This document shows, piece after piece, positions 870-48,017 of a DNA stretch of 64,000 nucleotides (position 1 is the first letter of the stretch; each line of letters opens with the position of its first letter). The stretch is from Owenia fusiformis (lineage: Eukaryota > Annelida > Polychaeta > Sabellida > Oweniidae): positions 6,779,815-6,843,814 of the forward strand of contig CAIIXF020000003.1 in the NCBI GenBank assembly GCA_903813345.2, given 5' to 3'. The notes under the pieces are model-generated. The model saw only the letters and a list, made by a program, of their open reading frames with translations, ran no database searches and was not told the origin of the DNA. The translations under genes and the position numbers were made by a program.

Positions 870-1255
870 AGTGAATAACTTACCAGCAGATAACTGATAA
901 CAGTGAATAAGTAGTTCATACCATTGGATACCTGTGTAACTTATCAGTGGATAACTGTATTTCATACCAGAAGATAACTGTATTAGATTTCATTGGATAA
1001 CTGTAGTATGTACCAATGGATAACTACATGTAACATACCAGTGGATATATGTATAACATACCAGTGGAAAACAGCTGTATAACATACAAATAGGTAACTG
1101 TATTAGATTTCATTGGATAACTAGTATGTACCAAATGGATAAATGTATAACATACCACTGGATAACTGTACTGTAGAACATACCGGTGGATAACTGTGTA
1201 ACATACATGTACCAGTGGATAACTGTATTAGATAACATTGGATAGTCATAACTCA
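870..1255 (+). repeat. Degenerate GGATAACTG repeat leader of TLR-A
   Basis: Many imperfect copies of a short unit of about 20-30 bp, roughly 'ACCAGTGGATAACTGT', end a few bases before the TLR-A start codon. Each unit contains TAACTG, which fits the MYB consensus YAACKG, and GATAA. The block must be promoter or 5' UTR. It is shared with copy B (10965-11300), where the order of variants differs. A regulatory role is inference; it could equally be a passive minisatellite. Confidence 0.75.
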
Positions 1256-1261
1256 TTCATA

Positions 1262-8210: not shown

Positions 8211-8760
8211 TATATAGACAATGGTATAGTCAAACGTCTACATAATAAACACTTATACTTGATGTGAATATAGACAATGAGTTATTCAGACTTCTATATA
8301 TAGACTAATAATTAATACTTATACTTCATGTGTATATAAACATAATATATTCAGACTTCTATATAATTAAGACACATACTTTGTGAATATAGACAATGAG
8401 TTATTAAAGACTTCTATATAATTAATACTTATACTTGATGTGAATATAGACAATGAGATATTTAGACTTCTATATAATTAACACATATACTTGATGTTTA
8501 TATAGACAATGAGATATTCAGACTTCTATATAATTAATACTTATACTTGGTATGTATATAAACATAATATATTCAGACTTCTATATAATTAAGACATATA
8601 CTTTGTGAATATAGACAATGAGTTATTCAGACTTCTATATAATTAACACATATACTTGATGTGTATATAGACAATGAGTTATTCAGACTTCTATATAATT
8701 ATTAATACTAATACTTATTATTAATACTTATTATACTTATTATTAAACTTAAATACAACT
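8211..8760. repeat. ~56-bp minisatellite, 3' flank of TLR-A
   Basis: About nine imperfect copies of a 55-58-bp unit with the landmarks ACTTCTATATAATTAA, TATACTTGATGTG and ATAGACAATGAG. The same array follows TLR-B (13794-13916, 18517-18796, 19633-19990). The sequence just left of the Tc1 element belongs to the same array. Confidence 0.93.
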
Positions 8761-10964: not shown

Positions 10965-11300
10965 GCAGATAACTGATACCAGTGAATAACTAGTTCATAC
11001 CATTGGATAATTGTTGTATGTACCAGTGGATAACTACATGTAACATACCACTTGATAACTGTATTAAATTTCATTGGACAACTGTAGTATGTACCAATGG
11101 ATAACAGTGTAACATACCAGGGGATAAATGTACTACATATCATTGGATAACTGTACAATATACCAGTGGATAACTGTGTAACATACCAGTAGATAACTGT
11201 AATGTACAATATACTTGTGGATAACTGTGTAACATACCAGTAGATAACTGTACTATAGAATGTACTAGTGAATAATTGTATTAGATAACAACAGATAGTC
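10965..11300 (+). repeat. Degenerate GGATAACTG repeat leader of TLR-B
   Basis: Same type of short repeat as 870-1255, ending about 10 bp before the TLR-B start codon, with many TAACTG cores. The number and order of units differ from copy A. Confidence 0.75.
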
Positions 11301-11311
11301 ATAACTCATTT

Positions 11312-14462: not shown

Positions 14463-15431
14463 CTACTGCTGTATCAATCGTTTTGAGAAATTAGCTAACA
14501 CCTCGATGGGCGTTCTTATGTACCTCTTATAGCAGTCACTTGACCACCTTCCCAACACTTTTAACTCCCATTCTTCGAATTGGGCGTTTTGCCCCTGACG
14601 TAGCACCTCCAATTCTATAGCTATGTCCACTGCATTTTTTAGGATCAATACCTATTATTGATAGACACTTTCTAGTATGACTGACAAAGACTTGGCGTGA
14701 TAGAATTGAACCATTGTTCAGAACGAATAACGGTGTATCTTTTTTATTTTCACTGAAAAGTGACAGGTTGTTCTTCATGGCCCATACTGCGCATACGTTT
14801 GTTTCTGTACATCCAATTATCACTTGAACTCCGGTTCCAATTGTATCAGTTTTTGATTGTTTTAAGATTACTTTCATAAAAGTTCCATTTACACCTTTGT
14901 GAAATGAGATGTCATTGGTAGTCATGTTCTTATTAGGACAGAACTTTGAATTATCTGGTATAGTGATTTCGTTACACCTGAATAACCCGAAGAATGCTAG
15001 AGTCATTGCTGACCACATAACTATGGTATCATGTATTTTACTTCTATGAAGAGTTTCTAAAGATTTCATAATTTGATGGTCTATAGCCAGTTTTTGATTA
15101 CATGTATTATCTTGTTTTGTATGAATAGCTTTCAATGCTCTCTTGACTGAAAAGTTATCTTTTAAAATGTCACCATGACCGTTTTCTAGATGCATTGATC
15201 GAATAGCATAAAGGTAATTAACAATGGTACCATGTCTAAGATTTCGTTCGTCACAATCTGCTATATAAGCCAAGATAGATGTTTGAGAGGCTGGGCAATA
15301 TTCAAGTGAAAAACGATCACAGAAATTTATGAAACTTTTCTGACCTGCCAGATACGTTTTTTGTGTTGACATTTGAAGTCCATTTTTTATGAGTAAATCT
15401 GATTTCTTGACCAGTCTCTCAAGCTCAGATC
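14463..15431 (-). pseudogene. Tyrosine recombinase of the Ngaro element (frameshifted)
   Basis: Integrates the circular DNA copy of the element. The frame from ATG 15372 covers the core-binding region, then the first catalytic arginine block (FGLFRCNEI) and the H-x-x-R block (GHSYRIGGATSGAK). About 14577-14597 the frame is lost: the original frame ends at 14536 and the terminal block WELKVLGRWSSDCYKRYIR, with the catalytic tyrosine, is in another frame down to the TAG at 14463. The coding frame is open upstream of 15372 and reads ELERLVKKSDLLIKNGLQ from just after a splice-acceptor-like TGCAG at 15432-15436. The N-terminus may therefore be joined by splicing. The single frameshift probably inactivates this copy. 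Confidence 0.88.
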
Positions 15432-15598
15432 CTGCAATCAGAATTTGACCAAATTAATACATTAAAATCAAAATTAAACAACGTATGTACAGTAAAACAC
15501 TTGTAATTAAACAATATCAGATCTCTGAAGTGTACATATGCTGATGAAAGTAACTGACCACATGTATACAAATTACTTTACACTCAATATACGTTTAA

Positions 15599-17308
15599 TC
15601 AATAAAATAGTTTGATTTCTTGTGGTTGCGTAAATTGTGTTTTTGTTTTAACAAGTTTATCAAATCGCTCAAAGTCTAATCTACTGATACTGTCAGCGAT
15701 TCCATTTTCTGTTCCTTTATTGTACATTGAGCAACATGTACTTTGATGTATGGCATTGTAATAAAATAGCGATCTCACTAACGCCATTAAATGTTTGTCT
15801 CTACATGCTCCTTTGTTGACAACGTGAACAATTGCTTCATTATCGCAGTGTATGATTATTTTTTTCTGAGAAAGTTCATTTCCCCATGTCGCCATTGCAG
15901 TCACTATAGCAAAAAGTTCTTTAAATGCGATGCTACGTTTGGCGTGTTCGTCCGTGAAGATTCCATATGTAAATTTGCCGTTAAAGAATGCACCATATGA
16001 ATTAGCGCAAGCGTCTGTGAACAATTGAAGCCTGGAACTCGGCGTCCATTCGTCGTCGAAAAATAAACTAGTTCCTCCCCATGAGGGTAGGTGGCTTAAC
16101 CACCAAGATATGTCCGATCTGAAAGAATTGTTGATTTTCATCTTGTGATGTAAGTGTTTTAACTTTGTTGAAAGATCAATGATCCTTCTCCAAAACAGTT
16201 TTCCTGCGTATATGACTCGGCAAATGAACGTCAGTTTACCTATCAGAGATAATATTTGTCGCTTTGATGCTCTTTTCCTGAAGAGCCATTTTTTCAAATC
16301 TGTTGTGATGTCTTGGAGCTTATCTTGCGGAATTTGGATTTCAAATTTGTTCGAATCTATGATAAGTCCAAGAAATTCTATGGAGGTGCACGGTTGTACG
16401 AGTTTCGACGGATTGATGCTGAAGCCAACGTCGGCACATGTCTGTACCATTATATCGAGATTATTCTTACATACGTCACTGTTTCTAGGTCCACATGTGA
16501 AGTAATCATCTAAATAATGGGGACATACTGTTGCACCATTTTGTCGCATTATAAATTCCAAGGCGTCTGCAAATTCGCTAAACAATTTTGGCGAGCTGCG
16601 TGCGCCAAACGGTAGAACTAAGTCAATGTAATATGTCGTGACGTTCTCGCCCGTGATGTCATTTCGTGTTTCCCACGTTGTTCCAAGGAGTTCCCAATCA
16701 GATTTATGTACTGGAATAAATTTGAACGCGTCAGCTAAATCCAGCTTGCTCATTAGCGCTGATCTTCCACATTGTTTCACTAAATTAATTGCAGTATCGA
16801 TACTTATGTAATGGCATCCACATTCTTCTTTGGAAATAAATTCGTTCACGGATTTCCCTGGGGGCCATGAGAGGTCGTGTATAATGCGATATTTTGTAGG
16901 GTTTGAGTGCTTTTTTGCATATGCACCCATCGGAGATCCGACGTACTTTTCACACGGTATAGAACTGAATGCTACTTTCCTTCCTTTGGACATTTCTTTA
17001 TCGATGTTTTGTTGTATGGCTTCGCTATTGTCTAATGCTGATTTCCAATTTCCATGAATATGGAATTCCCTTGGACCATTGTACCCAAGTTTAACACCAT
17101 GTGTGGCATTTTCAACAATATAATTTACAAAATTTTTGTCGGGGTGATTTCTTAACCCGTGGGCTAAAGCTATTGGGCACAATGGTTTGTAGGGCTTAAT
17201 TTCCTCCAATGCACTTTTTATTACATTTGTATTTTGGGATATCACTTGCCCCACAACCTTGGCATTTGTGAATTCTGAAGCACTGTGATCCATATTTACA
17301 TTCTCCAT
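15599..17308 (-). CDS. Reverse transcriptase / RNase H of the Ngaro element
   Basis: Copies the element RNA into DNA. The open frame extends up to 17446, but that position is GTG; the first ATG is 17308, giving 569 residues. The reverse transcriptase has LDLADAF near 189-195, PFGARSSP near 233-240 and the YLDD active site at 265-268. RNase H carries the acidic set D432 (LFTD), E464 (FKEL), D489 (HCDN) and D539 (IADS). The frame is uninterrupted. It overlaps the end of the gag frame, so expression probably needs frameshifting or reinitiation. The YLDD form fits the DIRS/Ngaro group rather than Ty3/gypsy. Confidence 0.93.
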   Translation of the reverse strand: MENVNMDHSASEFTNAKVVGQVISQNTNVIKSALEEIKPYKPLCPIALAHGLRNHPDKNFVNYIVENATHGVKLGYNGPREFHIHGNWKSALDNSEAIQQNIDKEMSKGRKVAFSSIPCEKYVGSPMGAYAKKHSNPTKYRIIHDLSWPPGKSVNEFISKEECGCHYISIDTAINLVKQCGRSALMSKLDLADAFKFIPVHKSDWELLGTTWETRNDITGENVTTYYIDLVLPFGARSSPKLFSEFADALEFIMRQNGATVCPHYLDDYFTCGPRNSDVCKNNLDIMVQTCADVGFSINPSKLVQPCTSIEFLGLIIDSNKFEIQIPQDKLQDITTDLKKWLFRKRASKRQILSLIGKLTFICRVIYAGKLFWRRIIDLSTKLKHLHHKMKINNSFRSDISWWLSHLPSWGGTSLFFDDEWTPSSRLQLFTDACANSYGAFFNGKFTYGIFTDEHAKRSIAFKELFAIVTAMATWGNELSQKKIIIHCDNEAIVHVVNKGACRDKHLMALVRSLFYYNAIHQSTCCSMYNKGTENGIADSISRLDFERFDKLVKTKTQFTQPQEIKLFY

Positions 17309-18331
17309 GTTGATATTTATTGCAGATTTCGTTTTTAATCTTATCCTTGCTGTATGTTGTTGTTGTTGTCGTAGACGGCGCCGACGACGTCGCCACCGTG
17401 GTCCCCGCTTGAAACGGGCAATTGGAGACCTTATGATCTCCTGCACAGCGATAACATTTGATGATGTGTTGCTTTACAGCTGTCGAGTCGAACGTTGTCA
17501 CGTATAGTTGTGTGTCAATATTCCCGAAATGTTGACTTTTTGTTTGTGATAATTTGCTTCTATATTTGACGTCATAGGCGTTGACGGCGTTCCACTTGAA
17601 TTTGGCGTCGACTTCTTGGATGATATTTCGATATGTACATAATCCAGGATAGGTGTGTGGTGCATTTTGTACAATGATAGCCTCAAAATATTCCAGGCGC
17701 TCAGCCATTGGGAGAAATTTTCAATTATTTTGATTTTTCTGGTTTGTTTTTGTCGCAGTTGGCCATTTTCAAGTGACAATATCGGATCGGGATTTTCATG
17801 ATGGTCGTGCAGTAAATTGGCGGGTAAAATGTCAATCATTTGAACAAACTCACCGTTCTTTATGGTTTTTATGACTTTTTCTGGAACCGGGACGTTTAAT
17901 ACGTTTGTCGTGTCATGTGTTGCTGTTGCCGTATCGGAGATGGAGTTCTGTTCCCCGGCTGATGTTTGATCCACGGCGGTCGATCTTTGTTCAATGGGTG
18001 TGGCTTGTCGCTGAGTTTGAATTTTTATCTCCCCCAATTCTTTTGTTATGCGCACAACTTGTTCCCTCGTGTTATTTTGTTCGACTTGCAAGTCCTTCGT
18101 AACCGCAATTAGTCCAGATATCTGTTGAGACACTTCCATCAAAGCAAGTTGCCATCCTGGAATGTCTTGTTTTGTATCGGCCGTGGAAACCGGTTCTGGG
18201 CGTGGCAGCTCGGCCTCGGCTTTCACGTCTAAATTTGAACATTTTGGTCCTATGGGACCTTTATGTCCACGAACTAGTTCCTTGCATTGTGTGCAGCGTC
18301 TACCTTGTTCTTGTGTGTCTTGTAAAGTCAT
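17196..18331 (-). pseudogene. Gag-like ORF of the Ngaro element (frameshifted)
   Basis: Putative nucleic-acid-binding structural protein. The frame from ATG 18331 starts with a zinc-finger-like CTQCKELVRGHKGPIGPKC, followed by a low-complexity and probable coiled-coil region. It reaches ENFSQW, then near 17690-17710 the continuing coding signal jumps to another frame (ATG 17708, ending 17196). That part has a CCHC knuckle (CYRCAGDHKVSNC), a threonine run and a CCCH finger (C-x7-C-x5-C-x3-H, around KYQHGECKYGSQC). The tail of the first frame down to 17498 is probably out-of-frame shadow. Gag identity rests on position and zinc motifs. Confidence 0.75.
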
Positions 18332-18395
18332 AATTTGTAATAAATAATTAAAACGTATAAAATTGACTACATAAAATCCGAAACGTCCTGCTCAA

Positions 18396-20481: not shown

Positions 20482-20676
20482 GTTGAAAAAGGGCTAGCAA
20501 TCAACATCCTGGCATTTATACCATCTGCCGTATTAGGAGTTATTGGAGGAATTCTAGGGGCATTATTTACATTCCTCAATCTCAAGTTTGCTCGTGCTAG
20601 GAAGAGACTATTGTCTAATATTAAAGCTCCATGGAAACAGAAAATCATCAGACTTGCTGAACCACTTATCATAATG
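20482..20676 (+). CDS. CLC exon 1 of window
   Basis: 65 codons, phase 0 at both ends, from VEKGLAINILAFIPSAVLG to KIIRLAEPLIIM. It covers a glycine-rich transmembrane helix pair and a basic cytosolic loop. Acceptor ACAG, donor ATG|GTGAGC. Confidence 0.9.
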
Positions 20677-23600
20677 GTGAGCTAAATACACATGTTATTA
20701 GAGAAAATCTTAATTAATATTCTAATTTGAATCAGTTATTTAGAACATGGAAAATTGACTCAAAGGAAAACCTTTTAGGAAATGAATTAGTCTTGAATTA
20801 TTTTAAATATTCTTATTTTTTACTATAATACACAAAATGATTGCCAATTACTAGAATATGTTACATTTTTATAAAAGAATAACAATAGTCACATCCAATT
20901 TTGGGTTCTTCACCCTATACAATGAGACCTTTATATCTGAACACCTCTCTAATCTGAACACCTCTCAATATGAACACTTCTTCTTGGTTCCGTTTGGTAT
21001 CTCTCTTTCATCAAATTTTTAAAAACCTTGAAATGTGAATCTTCTTTTTGATGGATCCAGTGGTGTTTTGATGAGACAAGTTTTACTGAATATCACTGAT
21101 TTAAGGCATGCATGTTTTCCCATTGCAGAGTATAGTCAGCACTGTATCAGTGTTTCTACCAGCAGCATTCAGTTGTAGCCAATACACATGTGTGCACCCT
21201 AAAGATGGCCAGACAAGGTAATATTTGTACATATAGCCAATATACATGTGTGCACCCTAAAGATGGCCAGACAAGGTAATAGTTGTAATATAGCCAATAT
21301 ACATGTGTGCACCTTAAAGATGGCCATACAAGGTAATATTTGTACATATAGCCAATATACATGTGTGCACCCTAAAGATGGCCAGACAAGGTAATAGTTG
21401 TAATATAGCCAATATACATGTGTGCACCTTAAAGGGATAATAACCTCAAGTAAAAACTATGATTCATCAGAATAATAAGTCTATAATCAAAAACATGACC
21501 CGGGTATGAGCGACGATCTTCTAATGCATCGGCAGATATATTGGGATTAATTTTGAGGTATTGGATCTTCACCTGGATTATGGAGGTCGCCATAACCTAC
21601 CTATGAATATTCATGAGCGGCGTCACTACGACTCGACAAATTCCAGCATTTTGATTGGCCCGAAAAATGCGCATGCGCAATTGTAGCGGGGCGGCCACAT
21701 TGAAAAATATCACGAACTTCTTAACAAGAAAATGGAGCAATTTGAAGATTTTGACGATGTATTTGGCATATTGACATACTATAATATGATATCACATGGT
21801 CGAGAAAAACATGACCATGTTCACATCAATACTTACAATTCATAGAATTAACTCCCAAAGTGCCAATCAAAACCAAAAACTGACCAACTCGTGAACGTTG
21901 GTTACCGACATGACAGGAAAATGCGTTAATTTTATGTTGACAATCAATTATCTCTCGATCGTTTTGCTTGAAGATTAAACATATTCGGATCTTTTATTTA
22001 ATAAAATGACGAATGGCAGATATTAATTGGATTTTTGACACTCTGTTATAAATATAAGGCAGAACTGATAATGTATTCCCCGTCATGAATGATCGCGATC
22101 GATGACGCAAGGTTCGTCATTTCGATCACCATGGAGGTGTATTTCTGTTGTGTTTACGGTAGACAACAAACAATTTAAAGGCTCGTAGACCTAGTATGTT
22201 ATATTTATTTCACAAATATGGTATTAAGTTATAAAGCTATTAAAGACATACGATACGATACGATACGATACGATACAATTCAAAAAGTTTTTTCAAAATG
22301 GCGTCGACCTAACCGGCACATGGCCTGGTTCAGTTCTCTTTTTGGGACCGGATTGCTCGCCTCGAATCCGTTTTCTTTGGTTTCTTGTGAGAGAATATGT
22401 ATGGTATGGCAACTGCCCGAACGACAGTGAGATTCCATTGTCGATAACGACAGTGTTATTTCTGTTGCCGATAGCAAACTGCCGTGGGTAAACCCGGAAG
22501 TAAAATTGTGTTCAATCTACGCCGTTTGAGGAGAAAATCAGCTAAAACAACTTGCCCCACGTGTCTAGAACCATCATCACTGTAGCGTCTATATGATCAA
22601 TACTTACTTGAAATATCCTGACATCGAACTAAATAAACCACTCTAACTTCAGTTGTTATTCATTTTTATTCACCAATCTATTTTGAAGAGCTTTTGAAGA
22701 GCAATTTCAGCATTTGAGGCAATCTGCGCCAGTTCCTCTTGATTCGGAATCTAGTTCAGGCGCATTAGAATGAATAATTTGATTGGCTTAATTCCAAAAA
22801 CACATGCGCACTTGTAAATTATTTCAAACTACTAGGCATGCGCGAAGAGTTGAAGCAAAAACGAAACTGCTGCAGATTACCCTACTTATTCGATGGGGGA
22901 ATATTGGAAAATTCTTTATTCAAAATGTTTTCCCGTATTGGGGAGAAAAAACACAACCCCAGGATAGATATAGGACGACAAAGACAATAATAAGTAGGAA
23001 TCTTTGATTGTTAAAAGCCGTACATGAAACTTGTGGTAGAGCCCATGGTGACACTGTTTTAAATGTGTTCTATTCCCCGGGGATTCGGTCCACGACAACG
23101 ACAGCTGGTTTTAACTGTCGACAGATTTTAATTCTACTGTCACCAGCCGACTGTCGTACTGTCGTTCAGGCATTTCTTTTAAAGTCCTTATCCCAAGTCT
23201 AGCTCTTTCAGTGGAAATATTTGAACAATTTACCGCACAACACATAGGCATTTTCCTTTGTTGTGAATGCTTTCAAGATGGCGGCTCAGGTCGCAGAAAC
23301 GTCACACTTCCGGTCTACATTCGGGTCTCTGAGGGAAATATGGCTAGCCCCGTCCAACAGACAACTGGGTCACTGGGTCAATTTATGATTTTTATTTTCA
23401 ATATTATACAAAAACTAACACATAACAAGATTTTCAACTTATTGCATTTTATTCAGTAGTATTGTAACTACATATAATGATGATTAGAATACCTGACATT
23501 ATTTCCGCTTTAAAGATGGCCATACAAGGTAATATTTGTACATATAGCCAATATACATGTGTGCACCCTAAAGATGGCCATACAAGGTAATTTTTGTAAT

Positions 23601-26600
23601 ATAGCCAATATACATGTGTGCACCCTAAAGATGGCCATACAAGGTAATATTTGTAATATAGCCAATATACATGTGTGCACCCTAAAGATGGCCAGACAAG
23701 GTAATATTTGTACATATAGCCAATATACATGTGTGCACCCTAAAGATGGCCAGACAAGGTAATAGTTGTAATATAGCCAATATACATGTATATGTGTGCA
23801 TCCTAAAGATGGCCATACAAGGTAATATTTGTACATATAGCCAATATACATGTGTGCACCCTAAAGATGGCCATACAAGGTAATAGTTGTACATATAGCC
23901 AATATACATGTGTGCACCCTAAAGATGGTCAGACAAGGTAATATTTGTACATATAGCCAATATACATGTGTGCACCCTAAAGATGGTCAGACAAGGTAAT
24001 ATTTGTAATATAGCCAATATGGCCATACAAGGTAATATTTGTACATATAGCCAATATACATGTGTGCACCCTAAAGATGGCCATACAAGGTAATATTTGT
24101 AATATAGCCAATATACATGTGTGCACCCTAAAGATGGCCATACAAGGTAATATTTGTACATATAGCCAATATACATGTACATGTGTGCACCCTAAAGATG
24201 GCCATACAAGGTAATATTTGTACATATAGCCAATATACATGTGTGCACCCTAAAGATGGCCATACAAGGTAATATTTGTACATATAGCCAATATACATGT
24301 ACATGTGTGCACCCTAAAGATGTTCATACAGAGTAATATTTGTAATATAGCCAATATACATGTGTGCACCCTAAAGATGGCCATACAGAGTAATATTTGT
24401 AATATAGCCAATATACACATGTGTGCACCCTAAAGATGGCCAGACAAGGTAATATTTGTACATATAGCCAATATACATGTGTGCACCCTAAAGATGGCCA
24501 TACAAGGTAATATTTGTAATATAGCCAATATACATGTGTGCACCCTAAAGATGGCCATACAAGGTAATATTTGTACATATAGCCAATATACATGTGTGCA
24601 CCCTAAAGATGGCCATACAAGGTAATATTTGTACATATAGCCAATATACATGTGTGCACCCTAAAGATGGCCTTACAAGGTAATATTTGTAATATAGCCA
24701 ATATACATGTGTGCACCCTAAAGATGGCCATACAAGGTAATATTTGTACATATAGCCAATATACATGTGTGCACCCTAAAGATGGCCATACAAGGTAATA
24801 TTTGTACATATAGCCAATATACATGTGTGCACCCTAAAGATGGCCATACAAGGTAATATTTGTAATATAGCCAATATACATGTGTGCACCCTAAAGATGG
24901 CCATACAAGGTAATATTTGTACATATAGCCAATATACATGTACATGTGTGCACCCTAAAGATGGCCATACAAGGTAATATTTGTACATATAGCCAATATA
25001 CATGTGTGCACCCTAAAAATGGCCATACAAGGTAATATTTGTATATATTTCCAATATACATGTGTGCACCCTAAAGATGGCCATACAAGGTAATATTTGT
25101 ATATATAGCCAATATACATGTGTGCACCCTAAAGATGGCCATACAAGGTAATATTTGTACATATAGCCAATATACATGTGTGCACCCTAAAGATGGCCAT
25201 ACAAGGTAATATTTGTACATATAGCCAATATACATGTACATGTGTGCACCCTTAAGATGGCCATACAAGGTAATATTTGTATATATAGCCAATATACATG
25301 TGTGCACCCTAAAGATGGCCATACAAGGTAATATTTGTATATATAGCCAATATACATGTGTGCACCCTAAAGATGGCCATACAGAGTAATATTTGTAATA
25401 TAGCCAATATACATGTGTGCACCCTAAAGATGGCCATACAAGGTAATATTTGTACATATAGCCAATATACATGTGTGCACCCTAAAGATGGCCATACAAG
25501 GTAATATTTGTACATATAGCCAATATACATGTACATGTGTGCACCCTTAAGATGGCCATACAAGGTAATATTTGTATATATAGCCAATATACATGTGTGC
25601 ACCCTAAAGATGGCCATACAAGGTAATATTTGTATATATAGCCAATATACATGTGTGCACCCTAAAGATGGCCATACAAGGTAATATTTGTATATATAGC
25701 CAATATACATGTGTGCACCCTAAAGATGGCCATACAAGGTAATATTTGTACATATAGCCAATATACATGTGTGCACCCTAAAGATGGCCATACAAGGTAA
25801 TATTTGTATATATAGCCAATATACATGTGTGCACCCTAAAGATGGCCATACAAGGTAATATTTGTACATATAGCCAATATACATCTGTGCACCCTAAAGA
25901 TGGCCATACAAGGTAATATTTGTATATATTGCCAATATACATGTGTGCACCCTAAAGATGGCCATACAAGGTAATATTTATATATATAGCCAATATACAT
26001 GTGTGCACCCTAAAGATGGCCATACAAGGTAATATTTGTATATATAGCCAATACACATGTGTGCACCCTAAAGATGGCCATACAAGGTAATATTTGTACA
26101 TATAGCCAATATACATGTGTGCACCCTAAAGATGGCCATACAAGGTAATATTTGTATATATAGCCAATATACATGTGTGCACCCTAAAGATGGCCAGACA
26201 AGGTAATATTTGTATATATAGCCAATATACATGTGTGCACCCTAAAGATGGCCATACAAGGTAATATTTGTATATATTGCCAATATACATGTGTGCACCC
26301 TAAAGATGGCCATACAAGGTAATATTTGTACATATAGCCAATATACATGTGTGCACCTTAAAGATGGCCAGACAAGGTAATATTTGTACATATAGCCAAT
26401 ATACATGTGTGCACCTTAAAGATGGCCAGACAAGGTAATATTTGTACATATAGCCAACATACATGTGTGCACCCTAAAGATGGCCAGACAAGGTAATATT
26501 TGTACATATAGCCAACATACATGTGTGCACCCTAAAGATGGCCATACAAGGTAATATTTGTATATATTTCCAATATACGTGTGCACCCTAAAGATGGCCA

Positions 26601-29600
26601 TACAAGGTAATATTTGTATATATAGCCAACATACATGTGTGCACCCTAAAGATGGCCTTACAAGGTAATATTTGTACATATAGCCAATATACATGTGTGC
26701 ACCTTAAAGATGGCCATACAAGGTAATATTTGTACATATAGCCAATATACATGTGTGCACCCTAAAGATGGCCATACAAGGTAATATTTGTACATATAGC
26801 CAATATACATGTGTGCACCCTAAAGATGGCCATACAAGGTAATATTTGTACATATAGCCAATATACATGTGTGCACCCTAAAGATGGCCATACAAGGTAA
26901 TATTTGTAATATAGCCAACATACACGCGTGCACCCTAAAGATGGCCATACAAGGTAATATTTGTACATATAGCCAACATACACGTGTGCACCCTAAAGAT
27001 GGCCATACAAGGTAATATTTGTACATATAGCCAACATACACGTGTGCACCCTAAAGATGTTCATACAGAGTAATATTTGTAATATAGCCAATATACATGT
27101 GTGCACCCTAAAGATGGCCATACAAGGTAATATTTGTAATATAGCCAATATACATGTGTGCACCCTAAAGATGGCCATACAAGGTAATATTTGTATATAT
27201 TTCCAATATACATGTGTGCACCCTAAAGATGGCCATACAAGGTAATATTTGTATATATTTCCAATATACATGTGTGCACCCTAAAGATGGCCATACAAGG
27301 TAATATTTGTATATATTTCCAATATACATGTGTGCACCCTAAAGATGGCCATACAAGGTAATATTTGTATATATTTCCAATATACATGTGTGCACCCTAA
27401 AGATGGCCATACAAGGTAATATTTGTACATATAGCCAACATACACGTGTGCACCCTAAAGATGTTCATACAGAGTAATATTTGTACATATGGGCGACTCA
27501 GTGTTCACATTGAGAGATGCTCAGTGTAGGGATGTTCTGATATATAGATTTTACTGTACTGATTTTCTATATATGTATACATGTTTTCCCCCATAAGGTG
27601 GTCTCCCCCTCTATGTGTCCTTTGAGGGGAAATGAGTGTTCAGTATGCATAATAATATAATCCATGAGTAATCCAAGTAGTATTTGTTTTGAAAAAGGGT
27701 TTTTACATTTTTTTTATATTTTTTACATTTTAGAAAAACAACTTGGAAATATCTTTGTTCCGATGCTTCATGTAGATTAGCTCATTGGTGTTTTATTGTA
27801 TTTTCTTTTCATGGAGATTATGTATTATCTTTAAGTTAAAAGATGCACCTATTTACATTATCAGAAAATTGCCACAATCTAAGATATTGGTTGCTATTCT
27901 TACTATCATTCTTTATTTTTCAGTCCAAACTGTCTTGGTGCTTCCCAGAATCCTTTGCATGTTGAGCCCAGTGTCTCCCCCTATACCTGTCCAGCTGGTG
28001 TTAATATTCAAAGAGGAAATTACACTTGGACAAATAACACATATAACCAAGGTATTGCCTTTTAGTTACACATATAACCAAGGTATTGCCTTTTAGTTAC
28101 ACATATAACCAAGGTATTACCTTTTAGTTTCTTTTTGTAATTGAACTTATATCACACTTGTATCCCATTCCCAGTTATGGGCCTTTCAAAAGGGGCCTTG
28201 TGTTCTACCAACATATTTTATTTACATAAGTTGAGGACCATGTGCTCAAGTATGTACATTCATACAATGCAGATTTTTGCCTGAACCAGCAATTAACCAA
28301 GATAATCAGGAGCGCAGCCTCAAGATCTATTTAAGGCTCAGCTAATTTTAATAAGTGTGGAAAATAAGGCTAAATGGGGTGCAACCGTGCAATGCTACCA
28401 TAATACTTCATTTTGCAGTTTTTGTTTATAAAACATCTGCATAAATATATTTCTGTTGAATATTAGTGAGGCATGCCTCATGCCCAGCTATGCCCATGTC
28501 CGTTTTTAGCAGATATACACAGCCAATGTAATTCGACATTGATTCAACGTAGATAAAATTTGACGTTGATTCGACAGTTCTTACAACGTTGTTTCGACAT
28601 AGTTTTGACATCAAATGTTTCTTACTAAAATCGACATTTTTTTCAACATCGAATTGGTGCCGAAACAGGTGTATATTCAAACATGCATGTTCTGCCACTT
28701 CAGCTATATTTCCGCGATATATCCAGGCTGGACGGTTAATGCTATTTGTAAGGTCATGAAGAAATAACTACTTTTACAACACAACAGGTCTTTTATACTT
28801 TCAGTTGCTACTCTACTATTTGTAACGGGGGAGAAAGCAATTCATCACTTATTTTCCCGCAATACTCATCTCGAGTTTGACTACTTGCCGTTATTAACAG
28901 TGCTCGCCATCTACTTCCTGTTAGCATGCTGGACAGCAGGGACATCTATATCTAGTGGCCTTGTTGTGCCAATGCTGTAAGTGCCCCCTACATTATACCA
29001 TTGGCTTTCTCTAAGAAGCCCATTGTACAAAAGGACTAAAGCCCATAAGAAGTCGATTCTTTGTTTTGTGTCCTGGCAAAATCCTAATCATGCAAGGGTA
29101 CAAGGAAAACAAACACAAACTCAAGAAAAAACACAAACTTGTTTGCTGAGAAATGTATACATTTTATGGGCATAAGAAGGGATGACATATGCAGTGATTA
29201 CAAACACATATCTATACATTTTATACAATATATTTAAACATAGCTATTATTCAAGTGTAAAAAAATAAGAAAATACACAATGTCAAAGTAATCAATAACA
29301 CTGTCATTTTTGATGCACATCAAATTATCTGCCATTTCGTCTGGTTCTTATTGAACGTAATGTGATGGTTCTTTCAGTCCGTTGTGATTGTTATTTAGAT
29401 GTGTTTGTTTTTCCTGATTTTCTCAAAATCGTGCAAGCAATGGGACGCAAAACAAAGAATCTACTTCTTATGGCCTAATTAAGTATATTGCTTTTATGAT
29501 TTTTTGATGAATAATCTTGTGTTTTCTTTCAATATATTGATCTCAACCTGACTTCATAACAAACAATAGCTTAAAGCAATTAAAAAAATTAGCTATAAAA

Positions 29601-32600
29601 GGTCATACTATTAAATAAATACATATTTCCATGTAACACCAAAAAATTAGAATAACAGTCACACTCATAGAGATCATTAATTTGGGTATTGTAGTTTTGG
29701 AGAGAAAATGTGAAATACAGTACTAAAACCTGTCTAAGTGGAACACCTTTCTTACCTCTAAAAAGTGTTCCACTTGTAGAGGTTCATTTGACATTATAAG
29801 TTATTGAATGATTTGAAGTGCAATACAGAATATATTCTGCTTGAGAAATTTTGTATTGGAACGAGACGAAGTCAAGTACCAATTCAGAATATCGAGAAAT
29901 TTTGTATTGGAACGAGATGAAGTCGAGTGCCAATACAGAATATCGAGACAGAATATGTCCTGCATTGCACTTCAAATTATTCAATAAGGTTTTTATCGTG
30001 TGATCCTCTGCATTGCTAGTGAGATTGTCCCCTCCGTATCAATATTTTCTGTATTGCGACGGAGACGATCAACGAGGACAATCTCAGTAGCAATACAGAT
30101 TGGTACAGCACAAGTGCTGACCAATCAGAGAGCTTTATTTTACAGATCATACGATAATATATTATGTGAGTTGGTTTTAGGACTCTGAAGTGTTCCACCA
30201 ACAGAGGTTTCTATTTCTAGGGGTGTTCCACTTTACAGGTTTCACTGTATGTATGAACAGTGAGATCTAAACATGGCTTGATGATCTTTTTCAGCTTCAT
30301 AGGTGGCCTTTATGGGCGCATAATAGGACGAGCCTTGGTTTCAATGTTTGGAGTGCATACCTCGGGGTACTGGGCCTGGATGGACCCTGGGGCATTTGCA
30401 TTGGTGGGGGCAGCATCATTCTTTGGTGGAGTCTCGCGTCTTACGATGTCGCTCACTGTTATAATGGTAAGGAGTTGTCACTAGGTCAATATTTTCATGT
30501 AGCCATTAAACTTAATTACATTTCAGACTCTAACATATACAAAAATGGAAATGAGATTTTGGATTGGGTATGCCAGTCCTTCATTTCTCAACCAATTTCC
30601 TGAACATGTACAATTTATTTAATTGACATCACAAACATTGAAAAACTGACTTATGGGTCAGAAAGTTGTCTTTTTGCTATAGAAATACATTAAATATCAG
30701 TGCATTGATTGCAACCACAATGAAACAAAATGATCTGATATATATTTTTGGATGGAAATGAATATTCTGCAACATAAGTTAATGATTGTTTATTTTTAGA
30801 TGGAGATTACGAATGACATCCAGTTTTTGCTATTAATAATGGTGGCAATTATGGTTGCTAAATGGGTCGGGGATTTTGTGACACACCCCCTCTATCATGC
30901 GTTGCTGGAACTAAAGTGTATTCCTTTCTTAGATGCTGAACCTGTCATAGTACATGGATCCAATGAAACGTAAGTTTATAATTTGCTCAGTAGTAGAACT
31001 TTTTTAGAAAATTCATATCTTTTAATAGATAACACACATTCTATGCACATTCAAAGTGCAAGAATCTTGTACATGAATCTATTGAAATTGATATTATATA
31101 TCAAATGATTTTTAATGTAATAGGCGACATTTTTTATCTGATCAGATAGATATTCATTATTATTATTATATCACGGTCATATTCCTCACTCTCTTATTGG
31201 TCCATGTCCTACACGTGACTAAAAAATAACTAGCGATATTCAACGGAAGTCACGTGACTTCCGGTGAATATCAAATGATATTCAACGGTCATGACTTATA
31301 CATCCCTGAGGTTGACTTAGTACAGTGTAATTTTCATTTCAATCTGGAGAATGAGCCATGTAGTGATTTAGATGATATATGATTATATTGTTAGAAGAGA
31401 TATAAATGTATTTCAATGTTAACATTTGACTTATTTAATTATAGAAAGTGTTATGACAGTGATATGATAAAACAAATATTTAATTCTATTTTCGGTGAAT
31501 ACCTGTGACACTTTCACAAGATGATATTCCTCTAGCCATCACTTGTGAAAGATGCACAGGTATTCACTTCAATAGAATTAAATCATTTTTGATTTTTAGG
31601 GAGGTTGGGTCGGGAATGAAATCATAATTGTTTTACCCAACTGAGACAGCGACACTACCCTGTGATGAAATTGCATTTGTTTCAAAAAGTTCAAAAAGTT
31701 TCAAAATCTATGTCAAATTAGTGTCACATGTGCATTTATTTGATATGTGAATATATAAATACTCCTTGCAGGGTTAACTTAGAGCTGTATTGTGCCAAAC
31801 ATATAATGTCTACCCCTGCAGACACGGTGAATTCTGTAGAATCCGTGCAAAGACTTGCACAATTATTACTAGAAACCCCGCATGGAGGTTTCCCAGTGGT
31901 GAAAAAAGACAAAGGGGACCAGTATTTCCATGGATTTATAACAAGGTAATGTTTATCATAAATCTGAGGTTGTTATATAAAATAATATTATCATGGACGA
32001 TATACAGTACATATAAATGGAAAATGAAATATTTAAACATCAAAAATATATCTTACAAGACATAGATATTTATATGTTTTGATCTTCATTTCAGCTAATA
32101 TTTTGAATTGTTATTTTGTACTTGTTTTATAGATTAGAATTGACAGTGCTACTGAAAAATGAAGACACCTTTGAAACCGAAATTGATTTGAATCCACTAG
32201 ATGAAGATAGCCACATAGAAGTCACTCATACAGAATATGAACAGGTGCATACTTTGGGCCAAGTCCCTTGCATCCATAGTTGGAGCTGGGCTGTCTAGTT
32301 ACATTGAGATTTTAAACTTCTGTTTTTATATAGCCCTTCAATTTCTTATCAAACTAAGCCTCTGTATCGCACAATCTCCTTTTTGGCCTTCGAGTCCCTC
32401 ATTTGCAAAAAGTCCAATTGTGTCCCTATCTTACATCAATCCCTGCCTTTTATTAAGAGTATCATTACCGTGCTATGGTGAACTAAATTCAACATTGTTT
32501 TTCTCTTGAACCAATTATTTGGTCGTGAATCGCTACAATATAGTGTCTTTGATATCGTCAATGACAACAGAATGTAAATTTGAAATAATTGACAAAGACA

Positions 32601-35600
32601 ATGGCATATGGTAATACGGTGTAGGGGGCCCAAATTTCAGGTCAGAGAAAAAATCCCGCGAAATTATTTTTTGAAATTTTGAGGCCCATTTTCTTCAAAT
32701 TTTGGTCTGAAATTAAAAATAAGGCCTTTAAAGGTCCAATGATGATAAAAAAGTCTCACTTTTTGGGGCCTCAAGGCCTTTTTTGGTCCAATTTGGCCCA
32801 ATTTTTTTTTCTGGGCCCATCCAACGAGGGGGGGGGGGCAGGCCAGGTGTTACATATATAGTTTCTAAATAGCTGAAAACGCTGACATAATAGATGACAC
32901 CCTTGTTTGTTTTTGATTTTCTTGGGCCAGACCTCCATTCACTTCAATGCTAGAAACTTTCAATAGACACTTAATTTTATGATTTATCAAAAAGTCTGAA
33001 ACTTGAATAGCATAATATTGGATGACCCTGTCAATGTACATATTGTGATTAATAAACATGAAAATATTGGTTGTCATACTAATAAGCCACCGAGTTTTCT
33101 TAAAATGCCATAGAAGATGATTTAAATGACAGAACTGTGTAAATCAAAGCTAATATTGGAGAAAACTTGTCACTAAATTCAAATATGCTATGAAAAATAA
33201 AGAAAAGTAACTCATTGAGGTAAAAAATGTTTTTCTCTTAAAATCACATGTAAAAATGAGAATAAGCGAGATTTCAAAGCTATTTAGAAATGGGACAGCA
33301 TCTTTTCCATTCAATCCAGGTTGGGTCATGCAGCCAAAGGTAAGCCATACAATCGAAGGTAAGCCATACAACCAAATTTTGCCGATTCAATCTGACGGAG
33401 AATGCCGAGCCTCTCTTTTTGACCAATTAGAGACGTCCTCTTCACATTCGAGGTACCCTCGGCCAACTTCGTTTGCAAAGAAAATCTTCGGTAATATCAG
33501 GCTTTTCTTGAGGTATCTTCGGTTGCAAGCCAAAAGTCGACACCCATTTCGAAACTCCTCTATTCTTAGAAAAGGAGACACTATCTTTTGTTGGTATTGT
33601 TTAATCACTTCTCCTTGTACCATGAGTATTTACAGTAGCAGTACACTTTTAATGTACATAATGTAGATTCTATGTTCTAAGTATAGAGTATTATTGTACC
33701 CAAAGTTAGAAAGGTCAGATTGTATGAAAACAAATCACATAACATATACAAACCTGCTTCATAATCATATAAAAAGTAGAAGGAAACTTCTGTCAAAGAA
33801 TTAGCTTTCAATTTTTGGGATCAACAATAGTTCATTGTATAAAGCGATGGGCCATTTCTTCCATATTGATTTCTGATTTTCAGCCAATCACAGCATAGAA
33901 TGTGACACAGCACTGCATGATTATAATAAAGTTTTATCAAACAATAATTTGAAAATCATCTTTCAATAATTTTAATGCTATCAAAATAGAAATAAAATTA
34001 CCATCATTACAAAAAATATAATTTTATGATGAACTATTACCCTGGTTTTTTAATAATGCTGCAAACTAATAGTGGTAATACAATAAGTAAAGCAGATATT
34101 TCAGAAAAAATTCATACGCTCATACTAACACAATGTTAACAGATGAGTTAAAGTAAAATTTTGACAATTGTTTTTTTGTAACTTTGGCAATTTATAGCCA
34201 AAGTAAATTCTATTGAGTAATAGATAACTCTCGCTCCACAATACTCTAATTTGTAGGGAATTGCACATCCATTATTTCTGTGTATCCTTTAATATCCCAG
34301 ATGCGAGTAGAAATGATCTTGATTTACGTCATTAAAAATTAACAATTCAGTCAAACTGATGTCATATTAGGAATCTACATGTAAAATTACTTCTAGAAAT
34401 GTGGTTTTGAAGAGAGTTTATCAACTTTGAAAATTTAATTTTCTTTGAAAATGTGACTTCTAGGTCGGGGAGATTCCCCATAGAGCCCATGTTGTAAAAC
34501 CACAAAAAGTGAAATATCTTTTCTTGTGTTGGGCAGATAATATTTTCTTTTACTGGACATATTTTAATCTGTATAACTATCAGATACATAAAGGTAATAT
34601 GAAAAGTGAACCATTAAAACTGATGCATATTCAAGTTTAAGGGAATTTTGTAATACCCTGCCATGTTAATTCCCCCGAATCAGCCACCTGGTGGTGAAAC
34701 TGGTAACTACCAACTCGCATCTGAGTAATTGTTTCTACATTTATACTTATACTACTGAAAAAGTAGATGGAAACTTCACCCGAAGGATTAGCTTTGAATT
34801 TTTGGGATCAACAATAGATCATTGTATAAAGTAATGGGCCACCTCCCTCAGTTTTATTCATCTATATTAAATTATAACAATGCTATAAATATAAGTAGAA
34901 CGTGGAAGTGCAACTTTTTTTCGGATGGAGGGTGAGAACAAGTTGACAAGGCTATACTAAAGACAGAAAATATAGCTCAGTATCATTCTAGAATTCCTCT
35001 CTTCAGCTATTATTCTTGGCAATTTCACCCATGAAACTGAAAAAAAGGTGTGACATATTTTCATGTTCATGTCTTGTTTTTTTTTTTAGTTGACGCTAGA
35101 CAAACTTTCTCAACCTGAGCAGATGCAGGCCATGCTCCAGCAATACCTGGATGATGACAGATACAAAGACCTTTATATTAACTTAGTGAGTACCTTAGGT
35201 TATCAAAGTAAAAATAGGATTGTCAAAGTCCCTATCTTGGGTGTAGCCTTGTGAGTCAATTTCCCGATGAAGTTCTTATCAAAATCTCAACCGCTCTGGG
35301 GCATTACTGCATGTCCCGAACGAATATTTAGGATAATTATTATCAATTGTGCTGAAGTTTCTTTGTGTACCTGATGTTAAGTAAAAGTGTACATGCACCT
35401 ATAAATATTTATTTCCAGAATCCTTATATCAACCAATCAGCTGTCACAGTTCAAGATCGTTTCTCCCTACATCGAACATATATCATATTCCGAACACTCG
35501 GTTTGCGCCATTTAACTGTAACGAACCACCACAACAAAGTTGTAGGAATTATAACACGTAAGGATTTAATGGGATTCAATATGGAGGAAAAATTACAAGT

Positions 35601-35676
35601 CGTCATGGCAACATCTCTTCCCCATTCTGGACGTGTTGTTGAATTGTCAGAGAATGCACGGTTACAGATAGCTTGA
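20482..35676 (+). CDS. CLC-family chloride/proton exchanger, C-terminal part (10 spliced exons; 5' exons outside window)
   Basis: A membrane anion transporter, probably of intracellular organelles. Joined exons 20482-20676, 21129-21217, 27924-28051, 28805-28976, 30295-30466, 30800-30969, 31772-31945, 32133-32244, 35090-35185 and 35419-35676 give 521 residues with consistent phases. The content runs from the middle of the transmembrane core (GVIGGILGALFTFLN) through the anion-site block SSGLVVPML and the core helix block GVSRLTMSLTVIM to two cytosolic CBS domains, ending GLRHLTV, VVGIITRKDL and stop. Best resemblance from memory is the CLC-6/CLC-7/plant CLC branch. The gating-glutamate and GSGIP motifs are encoded upstream and not visible, so channel versus exchanger type is inferred. 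Both TLR genes lie 5' on the same strand, so the missing exons are probably beyond them. Confidence 0.92.
20915..21095. repeat. Dispersed MITE-like fragment ('CTGAACACCT' family)
   Basis: Repeats of 'TAATCTGAACACCTCT' near 20940-20980 and a terminal AAGTTTTACTG near 21085 match the layout at 61393-61560. Related ends occur near 27500-27560. It lies in the first intron of the CLC segment. Confidence 0.6.
21129..21217 (+). CDS. CLC exon 2 of window (source of the splice-site array)
   Basis: 29 codons plus 2 nt, SIVSTVSVFLPAAFSCSQYT then CVHPKDGQT, phase 0 in and 2 out. Acceptor CATTGCAG; donor ACAAG|GTAATA. The last ~43 nt and the first ~15 nt of the intron form the unit amplified downstream. 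Reading past the donor gives an immediate TAA stop. The segment encodes the end of a helix and the start of a lumenal loop. Confidence 0.87.
21170..21432 (+). repeat. Exon-2/5'-splice-site array, first block
   Basis: The genuine exon end (21170-21217) followed by about four more copies of the 57-58-bp unit, up to the TTAA where the 21433-23509 element is inserted. Each unit carries 43 nt of exon 2 and AAG|GTAAT. Confidence 0.93.
21433..23509. mobile_element. TTAA-flanked non-autonomous element (2077 bp) inserted in the array
   Basis: TTAA flanks both ends (21429-21432 and 23510-23513), inside the array-unit variant CACCTTAAAGATGG. Terminal inverted repeats are short and imperfect (AGGGATAATAACCTCAAGTA against the complement of the right end, AGCGGAAATAATGTCAGGTA). 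The GC content is higher than its surroundings. The inside holds a (GATAC)n run at about 22250-22275 and stretches rich in CGACAGT. No convincing coding region, so a piggyBac-type non-autonomous element is likely. Confidence 0.78.
23514..27490 (+). repeat. Exon-2/5'-splice-site array, main block (~69 copies)
   Basis: About 3.98 kb of a 57- or 58-bp unit: TATAGCCAATATACATGTGT, then GCACCCTAAAGATGGCCATA, then CAAGGTAATATTTGTA(CA). The unit is the last 43 nt of CLC exon 2 plus the start of its intron. Variants (GTAATAT/GTACATAT ends, GATGTTCATACAGAG, ATGTACATGTG insertions, TTTCCAATA) occur in higher-order blocks. Copy number is length divided by unit. Long minus-strand open frames across the array follow from the period and are not genes. 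Confidence 0.95.
27491..27923 (+). other. Intron sequence between the array and CLC exon 3
   Basis: AT-rich and non-coding. Near 27500-27560 is a remnant of the 'TGTTCTGATATATAG / TTTTACTG' repeat family. It ends in a good acceptor, CTTTATTTTTCAG, at 27923. Confidence 0.6.
27924..28051 (+). CDS. CLC exon 3 of window
   Basis: 128 nt (1 + 42 codons + 1), from PNCLGASQNPLHVEPSVSPY to GNYTWTNNTYNQ. It encodes a cysteine-containing lumenal loop with N-glycosylation sequons, resembling the 'FxCPxxxYN' loop of CLC-6 and plant CLC proteins. Donor CAAG|GTATTG. The end of the exon is triplicated with its donor. Confidence 0.9.
28038..28130 (+). repeat. 31-bp triplication of the exon-3 end and its 5' splice site
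   Basis: Three head-to-tail copies of a 31-bp unit, ACACATATAACCAAG|GTATT then GCCTTTTAGTT. The first copy spans the real exon/intron border. Using a later donor adds 31 nt and an in-frame TAG in the unit. Confidence 0.95.
28131..28804 (+). other. Intron sequence between CLC exons 3 and 4
   Basis: Non-coding. Around 28525-28660 it contains alternating 'TTGATTCAACGT / CGACATTG' elements on both strands, suggesting a decayed inverted-repeat element. It ends with the acceptor TTATACTTTCAG. Confidence 0.5.
28805..28976 (+). CDS. CLC exon 4 of window
   Basis: 172 nt (2 + 56 codons + 2), V|ATLLFVTGEKAIHHLFSR to SSGLVVPM. It contains the conserved YFLLACWTAGTSISSGLVVP block that contributes to the anion pathway in CLC proteins. 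Donor CT|GTAAGT. Confidence 0.93.
29034..29480. mobile_element. MITE in CLC intron (~445 bp)
   Basis: Long imperfect terminal inverted repeats. CCCATAAGAAGTCGATTCTT and TTGTTTTGTGTCC on the left match the complement of GGACGCAAAACAAAG and AATCTACTTCTTATGG on the right, and CATGCAAG / CGTGCAAG follow on both sides. TA borders both ends. No coding potential. Confidence 0.75.
29716..30251. mobile_element. MITE in CLC intron (~535 bp, 'AAACCTGT..GTGGAACACC' ends)
   Basis: The left end, ACAGTACTAAAACCTG then TCTAAGTGGAACACC, and the right end, GGTGTTCCACTTTACAGG then TTTCACTGTA, are inverted repeats. Inside are further inverted segments (29840-29950, and 30020-30095 with TGAGATTGTC / GACAATCTCA). 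Non-autonomous, family not named. Confidence 0.75.
30295..30466 (+). CDS. CLC exon 5 of window
   Basis: 172 nt (1 + 57 codons), FIGGLYGRIIGRALVSMFGV to GGVSRLTMSLTVIM, phase 0 out. Covers the conserved PGAFALVGAASFFGG helix and the SRLTMSLTVIM segment. Acceptor TTTTTCAG, donor ATG|GTAAGG. Confidence 0.94.
30800..30969 (+). CDS. CLC exon 6 of window
   Basis: 56 codons + 2 nt, MEITNDIQFLLLIMVAIMVA to PVIVHGSNE. Encodes the last transmembrane helix, the AKWVGDF motif and the linker to the CBS domains (KCIPFLDAEP). Donor AC|GTAAGT. Confidence 0.93.
31235..31272. promoter_or_regulatory. 38-bp palindrome with an E-box flanked by ETS-type sites
   Basis: The centre CGGAAGTCACGTGACTTCCG is a perfect 20-bp palindrome; the outer arms (GATATTCA ... 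TGAATATC) extend it with one mismatch per arm. It holds CACGTG between two CGGAAG cores. Binding by bHLH or ETS factors is inference; a transposon hairpin is the alternative. Confidence 0.55.
31474..31583. repeat. Large inverted repeat (hairpin arms ~45 bp)
   Basis: TTTAATTCTATT, GTGAATACCTGTG and CTTTCACAAG on the left arm recur as complements on the right, with a loop of about 15 bp around 31525-31540. It could be a decayed palindromic MITE in the CLC intron. Confidence 0.75.
31772..31945 (+). CDS. CLC exon 7 of window (CBS domain 1)
   Basis: 174 nt (1 + 57 codons + 2), VNLELYCAKHIMSTPADTVN to QYFHGFIT. Encodes the first cytosolic CBS domain, with the IMSTP start and the GGFPVVKKD strand. 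Acceptor CCTTGCAG, donor CAAG|GTAATG. Confidence 0.93.
32133..32244 (+). CDS. CLC exon 8 of window
   Basis: 112 nt (1 + 37 codons), R|LELTVLLKNEDTFETEID to EVTHTEYEQ. End of CBS 1 (LTVLLKN) and an acidic linker. Acceptor TTTATAG, donor CAG|GTGCAT. Confidence 0.88.
32636..32850. other. Low-complexity intron stretch
   Basis: Alternating T-rich and GGCC/GGCCTT blocks, plus a run of nine or more G near 32829. No coding signal. Confidence 0.5.
33770..34860. repeat. Direct repeat pair in CLC intron (33770-33850 and 34755-34838)
   Basis: Both copies carry GGAAACTTC, GATTAGCTTT-type and TTTTTGGGATCAACAATAG blocks and CATTGTATAAAG. They lie about 985 bp apart in the same orientation. Confidence 0.75.
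34290..34725. repeat. Inverted repeat arm upstream of the last two CLC exons
   Basis: Matches 36070-36440 in opposite orientation. Shared blocks are AAAATTAAATTTTC, GGGGAGATTCCCCATAGA-like, AAATATCTTTTCTTGT, CCACCTGGTGGTGAAA / TTTTCACCACCAG and AATATTCAAGTT. The arms flank about 1.3 kb that includes exons 9 and 10. Confidence 0.75.
35090..35185 (+). CDS. CLC exon 9 of window
   Basis: 32 codons in phase 0, LTLDKLSQPEQMQAMLQQYL then DDDRYKDLYINL, in the linker between CBS 1 and CBS 2. The acceptor has a long T run (TTTTTTTTTTAG); donor TTA|GTGAGT. Confidence 0.9.
35419..35676 (+). CDS. CLC exon 10 of window (CBS domain 2 and stop)
   Basis: 85 codons plus TGA. It starts NPYINQSAVTVQDRFSLHRT and contains the diagnostic CLC CBS-2 block FRTLGLRHLTV, VVGIITRKDL, then a ~30-residue tail. 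The stop TGA at 35674-35676 is directly followed by a strong donor-like G|GTAAGT, so an intron in the 3' UTR is possible. Confidence 0.93.
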   Translation, partial: NPYINQSAVTVQDRFSLHRTYIIFRTLGLRHLTVTNHHNKVVGIITRKDLMGFNMEEKLQVVMATSLPHSGRVVELSENARLQIA

Positions 35677-47794: not shown

Positions 47795-48017
47795 TGTAAT
47801 GATCTGATAGATCGGTAGATATTGATTGGTTATTGGTTATTGATGTGAGTCTATAGAATATAATAATGACAAGCACAAGATGTAGTGTGTTCACTCATGG
47901 TGTATATTCTTATAACTGATGAACCAGGATGTCTCCTGGTAAGATGATACATATGGGTACATGTGGTCAGTGGTCAGTTAGTACAACATATGGTATTATA
48001 TAAATGAGGTCATTACA
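47795..48017 (-). repeat. 5' LTR of the Ty3/gypsy element
   Basis: 223 bp, the promoter-bearing LTR in minus orientation. It ends directly at the ATG of gag-pol, so no untranslated leader exists beyond the LTR. Confidence 0.96.

What the first reader, a model, noticed from the sequence alone, without database searches (positions are those of the whole stretch)
21170..27490. An exon end with its 5' splice site amplified into a ~70-75-copy array filling its own intron
The 57-58-bp minisatellite is not anonymous. Each unit is the last 43 nt of CLC exon 2 plus the first ~15 nt of the intron, and nearly every copy keeps AAG|GTAAT. The true exon border at 21217 is the first copy. The intron therefore starts with dozens of equivalent 5' splice sites. 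Using a later site would add out-of-frame or stop-containing sequence, because TAA lies directly behind the donor. The spliceosome must pick the first site, or this is a large reservoir of aberrant, NMD-sensitive isoforms.
Basis: partly seen in the sequence, partly recalled or inferred. Interest (0 to 1): 0.88.

Follow-up and report, generated by a model that had tools for sequence, protein, structure and literature searches.

The report
Exon-end splice site repeated 73 times
In a marine worm, the end of one exon of a chloride-transporter gene, with its splice signal, has been copied 73 times in a row inside the next intron, and only the first copy leads to the full protein; similar but smaller cases are known in human genes.

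Summary
The unit (57-58 bp in most copies) is the last 42 nt of a CLC exon plus about 16 nt of intron. I count 73 tandem donors (68 AAG|GTAAT, 5 AGA|GTAAT), split by a 2.1-kb insert between TTAA copies. Only donor 1 gives 865 aa; the 72 others give 439 aa. In the genome search the unit occurs only here.

The same gene has three smaller donor-spanning arrays (exons 3, 5, 11). A dysbindin gene about 85 kb away has 31 donors in an 85-bp array, and the published Owenia fusiformis dysbindin equals splicing at the first. That match also identifies the species. Five other CLC loci show one donor-side and two acceptor-side copies.

Best reading: ordinary minisatellite expansion across an exon border, tolerated because the exon-adjacent splice site is used. 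The kind is known (human CBS 31-bp VNTR, IFI6); the scale and recurrence are unusual. Donor choice in CLC transcripts is inferred: no RNA was available.

The parts
20482..20676 (+). CLC exon 9 of 18
   Evidence: open frame, tblastn to four CLC homologues, splice sites and phase
21129..21217 (+). CLC exon 10, whose last 42 nt (21176-21217) are the first copy of the array unit
   Evidence: tblastn and alignment with 16 homologues; gene model
21218..21223 (+). first 5' splice site (AAG|GTAATA), the only one of 73 that gives the 865-aa frame
   Evidence: U1 pairing -6.6 kcal/mol, U1 end recalled
21176..21432 (+). left block of the array: donors 1-4 and a part unit cut by the insert
   Evidence: TRF, unit alignment
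21433..23509 (.). insert of about 2.1 kb between two TTAA copies (21429-21432, 23510-23513), inserted into a unit of variant CACCTTAAAG
   Evidence: sequence; one match, itself, within 164 kb; genome-wide search for it not answered
23510..27490 (+). right block of the array: donors 5-73
   Evidence: TRF, donor scan, unit alignment
27924..28051 (+). CLC exon 11, joined to exon 10 in the model
   Evidence: tblastn, phase 2 join without stop
28037..28129 (+). second exon-end array in the window: 31-bp unit, 3 donors CCAAG|GTATT, starting in exon 11
   Evidence: TRF; only donor 1 gives 865 aa, others 485
28805..35676 (+). CLC exons 12-18 (28805-28976, 30295-30466, 30800-30969, 31772-31945, 32133-32244, 35090-35185, 35419-35676)
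   Evidence: tblastn, gene model. Exons 1-8 lie upstream of the window at C3:6771723-6778717, with donor arrays at exon 3 (C3:6773139-6773594) and exon 5 (C3:6774604-6774654)

Best explanation
A short tandem duplication across the exon 10/intron 10 border of an intact CLC (chloride channel/transporter) gene grew by ordinary minisatellite expansion and homogenisation to 73 copies. Shown: the layout, the copy number in this assembly, the open frame of the whole gene, and that only the first donor gives the full protein. Inferred: the spliceosome mostly pairs the exon's own acceptor with the first donor and removes the whole array as intron, probably because the 89-nt exon is recognised as a unit and its donor is transcribed first; messages from later donors carry an early stop and would be short-lived. 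The extra donors then need no function.
For: 865-aa frame without stop over 18 exons. Only donor 1 keeps it: 1 of 73 at exon 10, 1 of 5 at exon 3, 1 of 2 at exon 5, 1 of 3 at exon 11. Homologues run through the border without a repeat-like insert. Single locus in the genome search. A parallel case with a published protein: dysbindin exon 5 has 31 donors and splicing at the first reproduces the published 368-aa Owenia protein letter for letter, while donors 2-31 give 187 aa. Units diverge by 4.0% on average, neighbours are more alike (2.9% at lag 1), and donor columns show no extra conservation, as neutral turnover would give.
Against: No transcript of the CLC gene was seen. In human IFI6 two downstream repeat units are used as donors (PMC4526556, passage), so later donors can work. 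SRSF1 is reported to favour intron-proximal donors (PMC5585400, passage), which would favour the wrong end here. GTAAT is unchanged in 73 of 73 units found with that motif (the scan itself asked for it), one of 2 of 54 five-column windows without change.
Confidence: 0.8

Rival explanations
1. Regulated unproductive splicing: the array is a sink. A share of transcripts uses a later donor, is truncated after 439 aa and destroyed, so array length or splicing-factor levels tune CLC output.
For: All 72 later donors lead to the same early stop with further exon junctions behind it. The related human CBS VNTR is reported to go with lower enzyme activity as copies increase (PMC5188458, passage).
Against: No RNA evidence. 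No sign that the intronic donors are kept by selection. First-donor accessibility in folded RNA is not lower than that of the others (0.66 against 0.24-0.66).
Confidence: 0.12
2. The copy number is partly an assembly effect: the array is real but much shorter or longer in the animals.
For: Tandem arrays of several kb are hard to assemble (general knowledge); the reads were not available here.
Against: 36 distinct units in 71, shortened and 6-bp-longer units and a split by an insert are not what a simple collapse or duplication of reads gives; the same layout with few copies occurs at three other exons.
Confidence: 0.05
3. Foreign satellite that happens to end at the exon.
For: None found.
Against: All 73 matches to the unit in the 498-Mb genome lie at this locus (the tool warns that counts are lower bounds and common words are skipped). 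The exon part is coding in frame and aligns with homologues.
Confidence: 0.02

Closest known systems
Human CBS 31-bp VNTR at exon 13/intron 13, c.1444_1467+7(16_21) (passages of PMC2630376, and PMC5188458; Lievers 2001 seen only as a reference)
   Same: Unit = exon end (24 nt by the cDNA numbering) plus start of intron (7 nt), in tandem, each copy with a possible donor.
   Different: 16-21 copies of 31 bp and polymorphic in people; here 73 donors of 57-58 bp, variation between worms unknown, split by an insert, and several borders of one gene affected.
Human IFI6 (6-16) minisatellite (PMC4526556, passage; Turri 1995 seen only as a reference, and not held)
   Same: A tandem repeat that supplies many splice donors at an exon end.
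   Different: There two downstream repeat units are reported as used, giving three mRNA species; here every later donor truncates the protein. The 12-bp unit length is recalled.
Human CBS 844ins68 (passage of PMC2630376)
   Same: Duplicated intron/exon border with the site next to the intact exon used, giving normal mRNA.
   Different: A single duplication at the intron 7/exon 8 border, that is on the acceptor side (the passage says donor, its cited paper says 3' splice site); comparable to the acceptor copies in L029 and L032.
DOK7 intron 4 tandem 5' splice sites (PMC5585400, passages)
   Same: Two neighbouring donors compete and the wrong one truncates the protein.
   Different: Two donors 11 nt apart, not an array.

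Membership tests
Splice-donor-spanning minisatellite (CBS VNTR / IFI6 kind) | Repeat unit consists of exon end plus intron start | tested here: met
   42 nt of exon 10 plus about 16 nt of intron
Splice-donor-spanning minisatellite (CBS VNTR / IFI6 kind) | Tandem copies keep a usable donor | tested here: met
   73 donors with GTAAT; 68 as in the exon, 5 weaker
Splice-donor-spanning minisatellite (CBS VNTR / IFI6 kind) | First copy is the true exon end | tested here: met
   open frame and homologues; by inference, not RNA
Splice-donor-spanning minisatellite (CBS VNTR / IFI6 kind) | Copy number varies between individuals | not testable with these tools
   one genome held
Splice-donor-spanning minisatellite (CBS VNTR / IFI6 kind) | Which donors are used in mRNA | not testable with these tools
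   no transcripts; for the dysbindin array the published protein fits donor 1
CLC channel/transporter | Voltage_CLC domain and full-length frame | tested here: met
   PF00654 above cut-off; 18 exons, 865 aa; 403 homologues, 120 listed. Ion transport itself not tested
Dispersed satellite DNA | Unit present at other loci | tested here: not met
   73 matches, one locus

The most novel reading that the evidence does not exclude
In this annelid exon borders are a recurrent seed for tandem amplification: four donors of one gene, one of a gene nearby, and donor- and acceptor-side copies in other CLC genes. Splicing would obey one rule throughout: of up to 73 near-identical sites the exon-adjacent one wins (first donor, last acceptor). 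These loci would then show that local site strength and nearness to the partner site do not decide splice-site choice, and array length could act as a graded tax on expression.
Probability: 0.2. Interest if true: 0.75.

Novelty: new member of a known kind. Interest (0 to 1): 0.52.

Why it matters
Seventy-three near-equal 5' splice sites in one intron, of which only the one furthest from the acceptor is productive, are a strong natural test of how a donor is chosen among equals; the dysbindin array with a published protein gives a second test with 31. Such exons may also be lost in annotation: the Owenia genome paper removed 5,779 gene predictions that overlapped repeats (passage), and no near-identical Owenia CLC protein was among the 120 hits listed of 403. 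That the first fact explains the second is my inference; a second protein search to check it could not be made.

Tried and rejected
Foreign satellite: rejected. Selection on intronic donors: no support. RNA structure hiding later donors: not supported; unpaired probability 0.66, 0.24, 0.66, 0.50 for donors 1-4 and 0.43-0.65 for eight interior donors.

'Only donors can be amplified': my first idea (4 of 17 donors, 0 of 17 acceptors by TRF in this gene; Fisher one-sided p = 0.051), dropped. In seven genes, exons of 60 nt or more, local alignment found copies at 4 of 84 donors and 2 of 86 acceptors; exon 5 of the CLC gene fell just under that rule, and one of the two acceptors is a lone 15-nt match 374 nt upstream of exon 4. 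The two cases in L029 were missed there because of a spurious exon and a 55-nt exon; with exons under 50 nt dropped, the five other CLC loci give 1 of 63 donors and 2 of 63 acceptors. Pooled, 6 of 86 against 2-3 of 86, p = 0.28-0.50 (this total counts dysbindin's first donor, which was not tested).

Excess in this gene: 4 of 17 against 1 of 63, p = 0.006, but by the same rule 3 of 17 against 1 of 63, p = 0.029; the gene was picked for its array. Against random placement in 264 kb: P = 0.015, 0.065 without the reported array. In an earlier 164-kb sample repeat coverage was about 11% instead of 6%, which would weaken this further.

The five CLC loci were modelled with a home-made spliced aligner and distant proteins; several exons are doubtful, and one exon end in L029 was corrected by hand after reading the sequence. 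They are 5 of the 7 other places of the family search; C9 and C1:10.07 Mb were left out. Arrays with donor-like motifs at C3:6735495, 6747331, 6755603, 6763190 and 6894497 had no recognisable exon beside them. Pfam did not recognise the dysbindin pieces.

Papers: none of my ten searches listed a paper on this locus; two searches listed nothing. PMC6692358 (one passage) was not close enough to use; of PMC8724738 only passages were seen.

Full report
WHAT IS THERE. The window is C3:6779815-6843814 of a 498-Mb genome in 525 contigs. Between 21176 and 27490 lies a tandem array of a unit that is 57-58 bp in most copies (70 of 72 donor spacings are 56-64 bp). It starts inside an exon: the first copy is the last 42 nt of exon 21129-21217 plus the first 16 nt of the intron. 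I count 73 donors: 68 AAG|GTAAT and 5 AGA|GTAAT. One unit is shortened (spacing 36) and one is cut by an insert of about 2.1 kb. The insert sits between two TTAA copies, in a unit variant (CACCTTAAAG) that also occurs in units 3, 54, 55 and 60, so the array is older than the insert. The array takes about 4.2 of the 6.7 kb of the intron. Among 71 full units mean divergence is 4.0%; neighbours are more alike (2.9%), and units nearer the exon are slightly more like it (rho 0.31, p = 0.01, units not independent). In the genome search all 73 matches fall at this locus (counts are lower bounds by the tool's own warning).

THE GENE. The joined exons 9-11 match Voltage_CLC and CLC-6 of the PDB. The 5' exons lie just upstream of the window. 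The model has 18 exons, C3:6771723-6815490, and one open frame of 865 aa. The best full-coverage homologues are CLC proteins of unknown source, Lineus, Lingula, a chiton and cnidarians, up to 66% identical; one partial match (Tubulanus) reaches 71% over 73% of the query. In an alignment with 16 of the 120 listed homologues the coding sequence runs through the exon 10/11 border. Nine have the same length there, the others are 7 shorter to 4 longer, and Capitella has a longer insert further on; the letters HPKDGQT are not conserved. The 21.6-kb intron 8 holds two ORFs with LRR and TIR domains.

WHAT LATER DONORS WOULD DO. With donor 1 the frame gives 865 aa; with any of donors 2-73 it gives 439 aa, because the codon after the border is TAA. 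The donors are near-equal in U1 pairing: -6.6 kcal/mol, or -3.6 for the AGA form; the gene's nine donors in the window lie between -5.7 and -8.5 (U1 end recalled).

IT RECURS. In the same gene TRF arrays span the donors of exon 3 (91 bp, 5 donors), exon 5 (24 bp, 2 donors) and exon 11 (31 bp, 3 donors), and no acceptor: 4 of 17 donors, 0 of 17 acceptors. In all four only donor 1 is productive. On the other strand, about 85 kb away, a dysbindin exon has an 85-bp unit with 31 donors, 31 of 31 ATGAAAG|GTAAA. A protein search with its joined exons returned one protein, the published Owenia fusiformis dysbindin, 99% identical, on a contig of 34,910,993 bases, the length of C3. Splicing the genome at the first of the 31 donors reproduces that 368-aa protein letter for letter; donors 2-31 would give 187 aa. 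The genome paper states that 99.29% of its filtered transcripts have RNA-seq support (passage), so first-donor use there is probably, not certainly, read-supported.

HOW COMMON. I fetched 5 of the 7 other places found by the CLC family search, chosen before looking at their repeats. Of 63 donors tested one has a copy (L029, an unrelated stretch lying between the copies), and of 63 acceptors two have (L029, L032), the earlier copy lying upstream of the modelled exon. So acceptor borders are hit too, and my donor-only idea fell. The CLC gene of the window is enriched (4 of 17, or 3 of 17 by the same rule as the others; p = 0.006 or 0.029), with the caution that it was picked for its array and that the other models are rough.

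MECHANISM. Best supported: slippage or unequal exchange enlarged a duplication across an exon border; splicing uses the exon-adjacent copy, so the array is removed as intron and the protein is untouched. First-donor use is inferred for CLC and fits the published protein for dysbindin. Recognition of the exon as a unit and first-transcribed-first-bound are textbook ideas (recalled), not tested here. Against a simple rule: SRSF1 and hnRNP A1 are reported to favour intron-proximal and intron-distal donors respectively (PMC5585400, passages), and in human IFI6 downstream repeat donors are used (PMC4526556, passage).

KNOWN KIND. The human CBS 31-bp VNTR has the same anatomy, written c.1444_1467+7(16_21): 24 nt of exon and 7 of intron, 16-21 copies (PMC2630376, passages); more copies are reported to go with lower CBS activity (PMC5188458, passage). 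IFI6 is the second precedent (Turri 1995 seen only as a reference; not held). Hence 'new member of a known kind'. New are the scale (73 donors), the recurrence at four donors of one gene and in a gene nearby, and a species with public RNA data in which donor use can be counted.

VERDICT.

Noticed in passing
window 1232-3565 and 11285-13615 (+): Two tandem Toll-like-receptor-like ORFs (777 and 776 aa, LRR and TIR domains) lie inside CLC intron 8 on the same strand.
   Followed up: partly
window 14536-18391 (-): Retroelement ORFs in the same intron; one has a reverse transcriptase domain. The name DIRS/Ngaro-like is recalled; the 305-aa ORF had no Pfam match at 1e-5.
   Followed up: partly
window 43817-47836 (-): 1339-aa ORF with reverse transcriptase, RNase H and integrase domains, Ty3/gypsy-like (recalled).
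   Followed up: partly
window 21433-23509: Insert of about 2.1 kb between TTAA copies inside the array, with weak inverted ends; its copy number in the genome could not be searched.
   Followed up: partly
C3:6713962-6716595 (outside the window, L015): Dysbindin exon end and donor amplified to 31 copies of 85 bp.
   Followed up: yes
L029:5507-5646 and L032 (minus strand, near 8586-8628): Acceptor-side copies of exon starts in two other CLC genes.
   Followed up: partly
window 31945: CLC exon 15 ends AACAAG|GTAATG, almost the array's donor, but shows no tandem copies.
   Followed up: no
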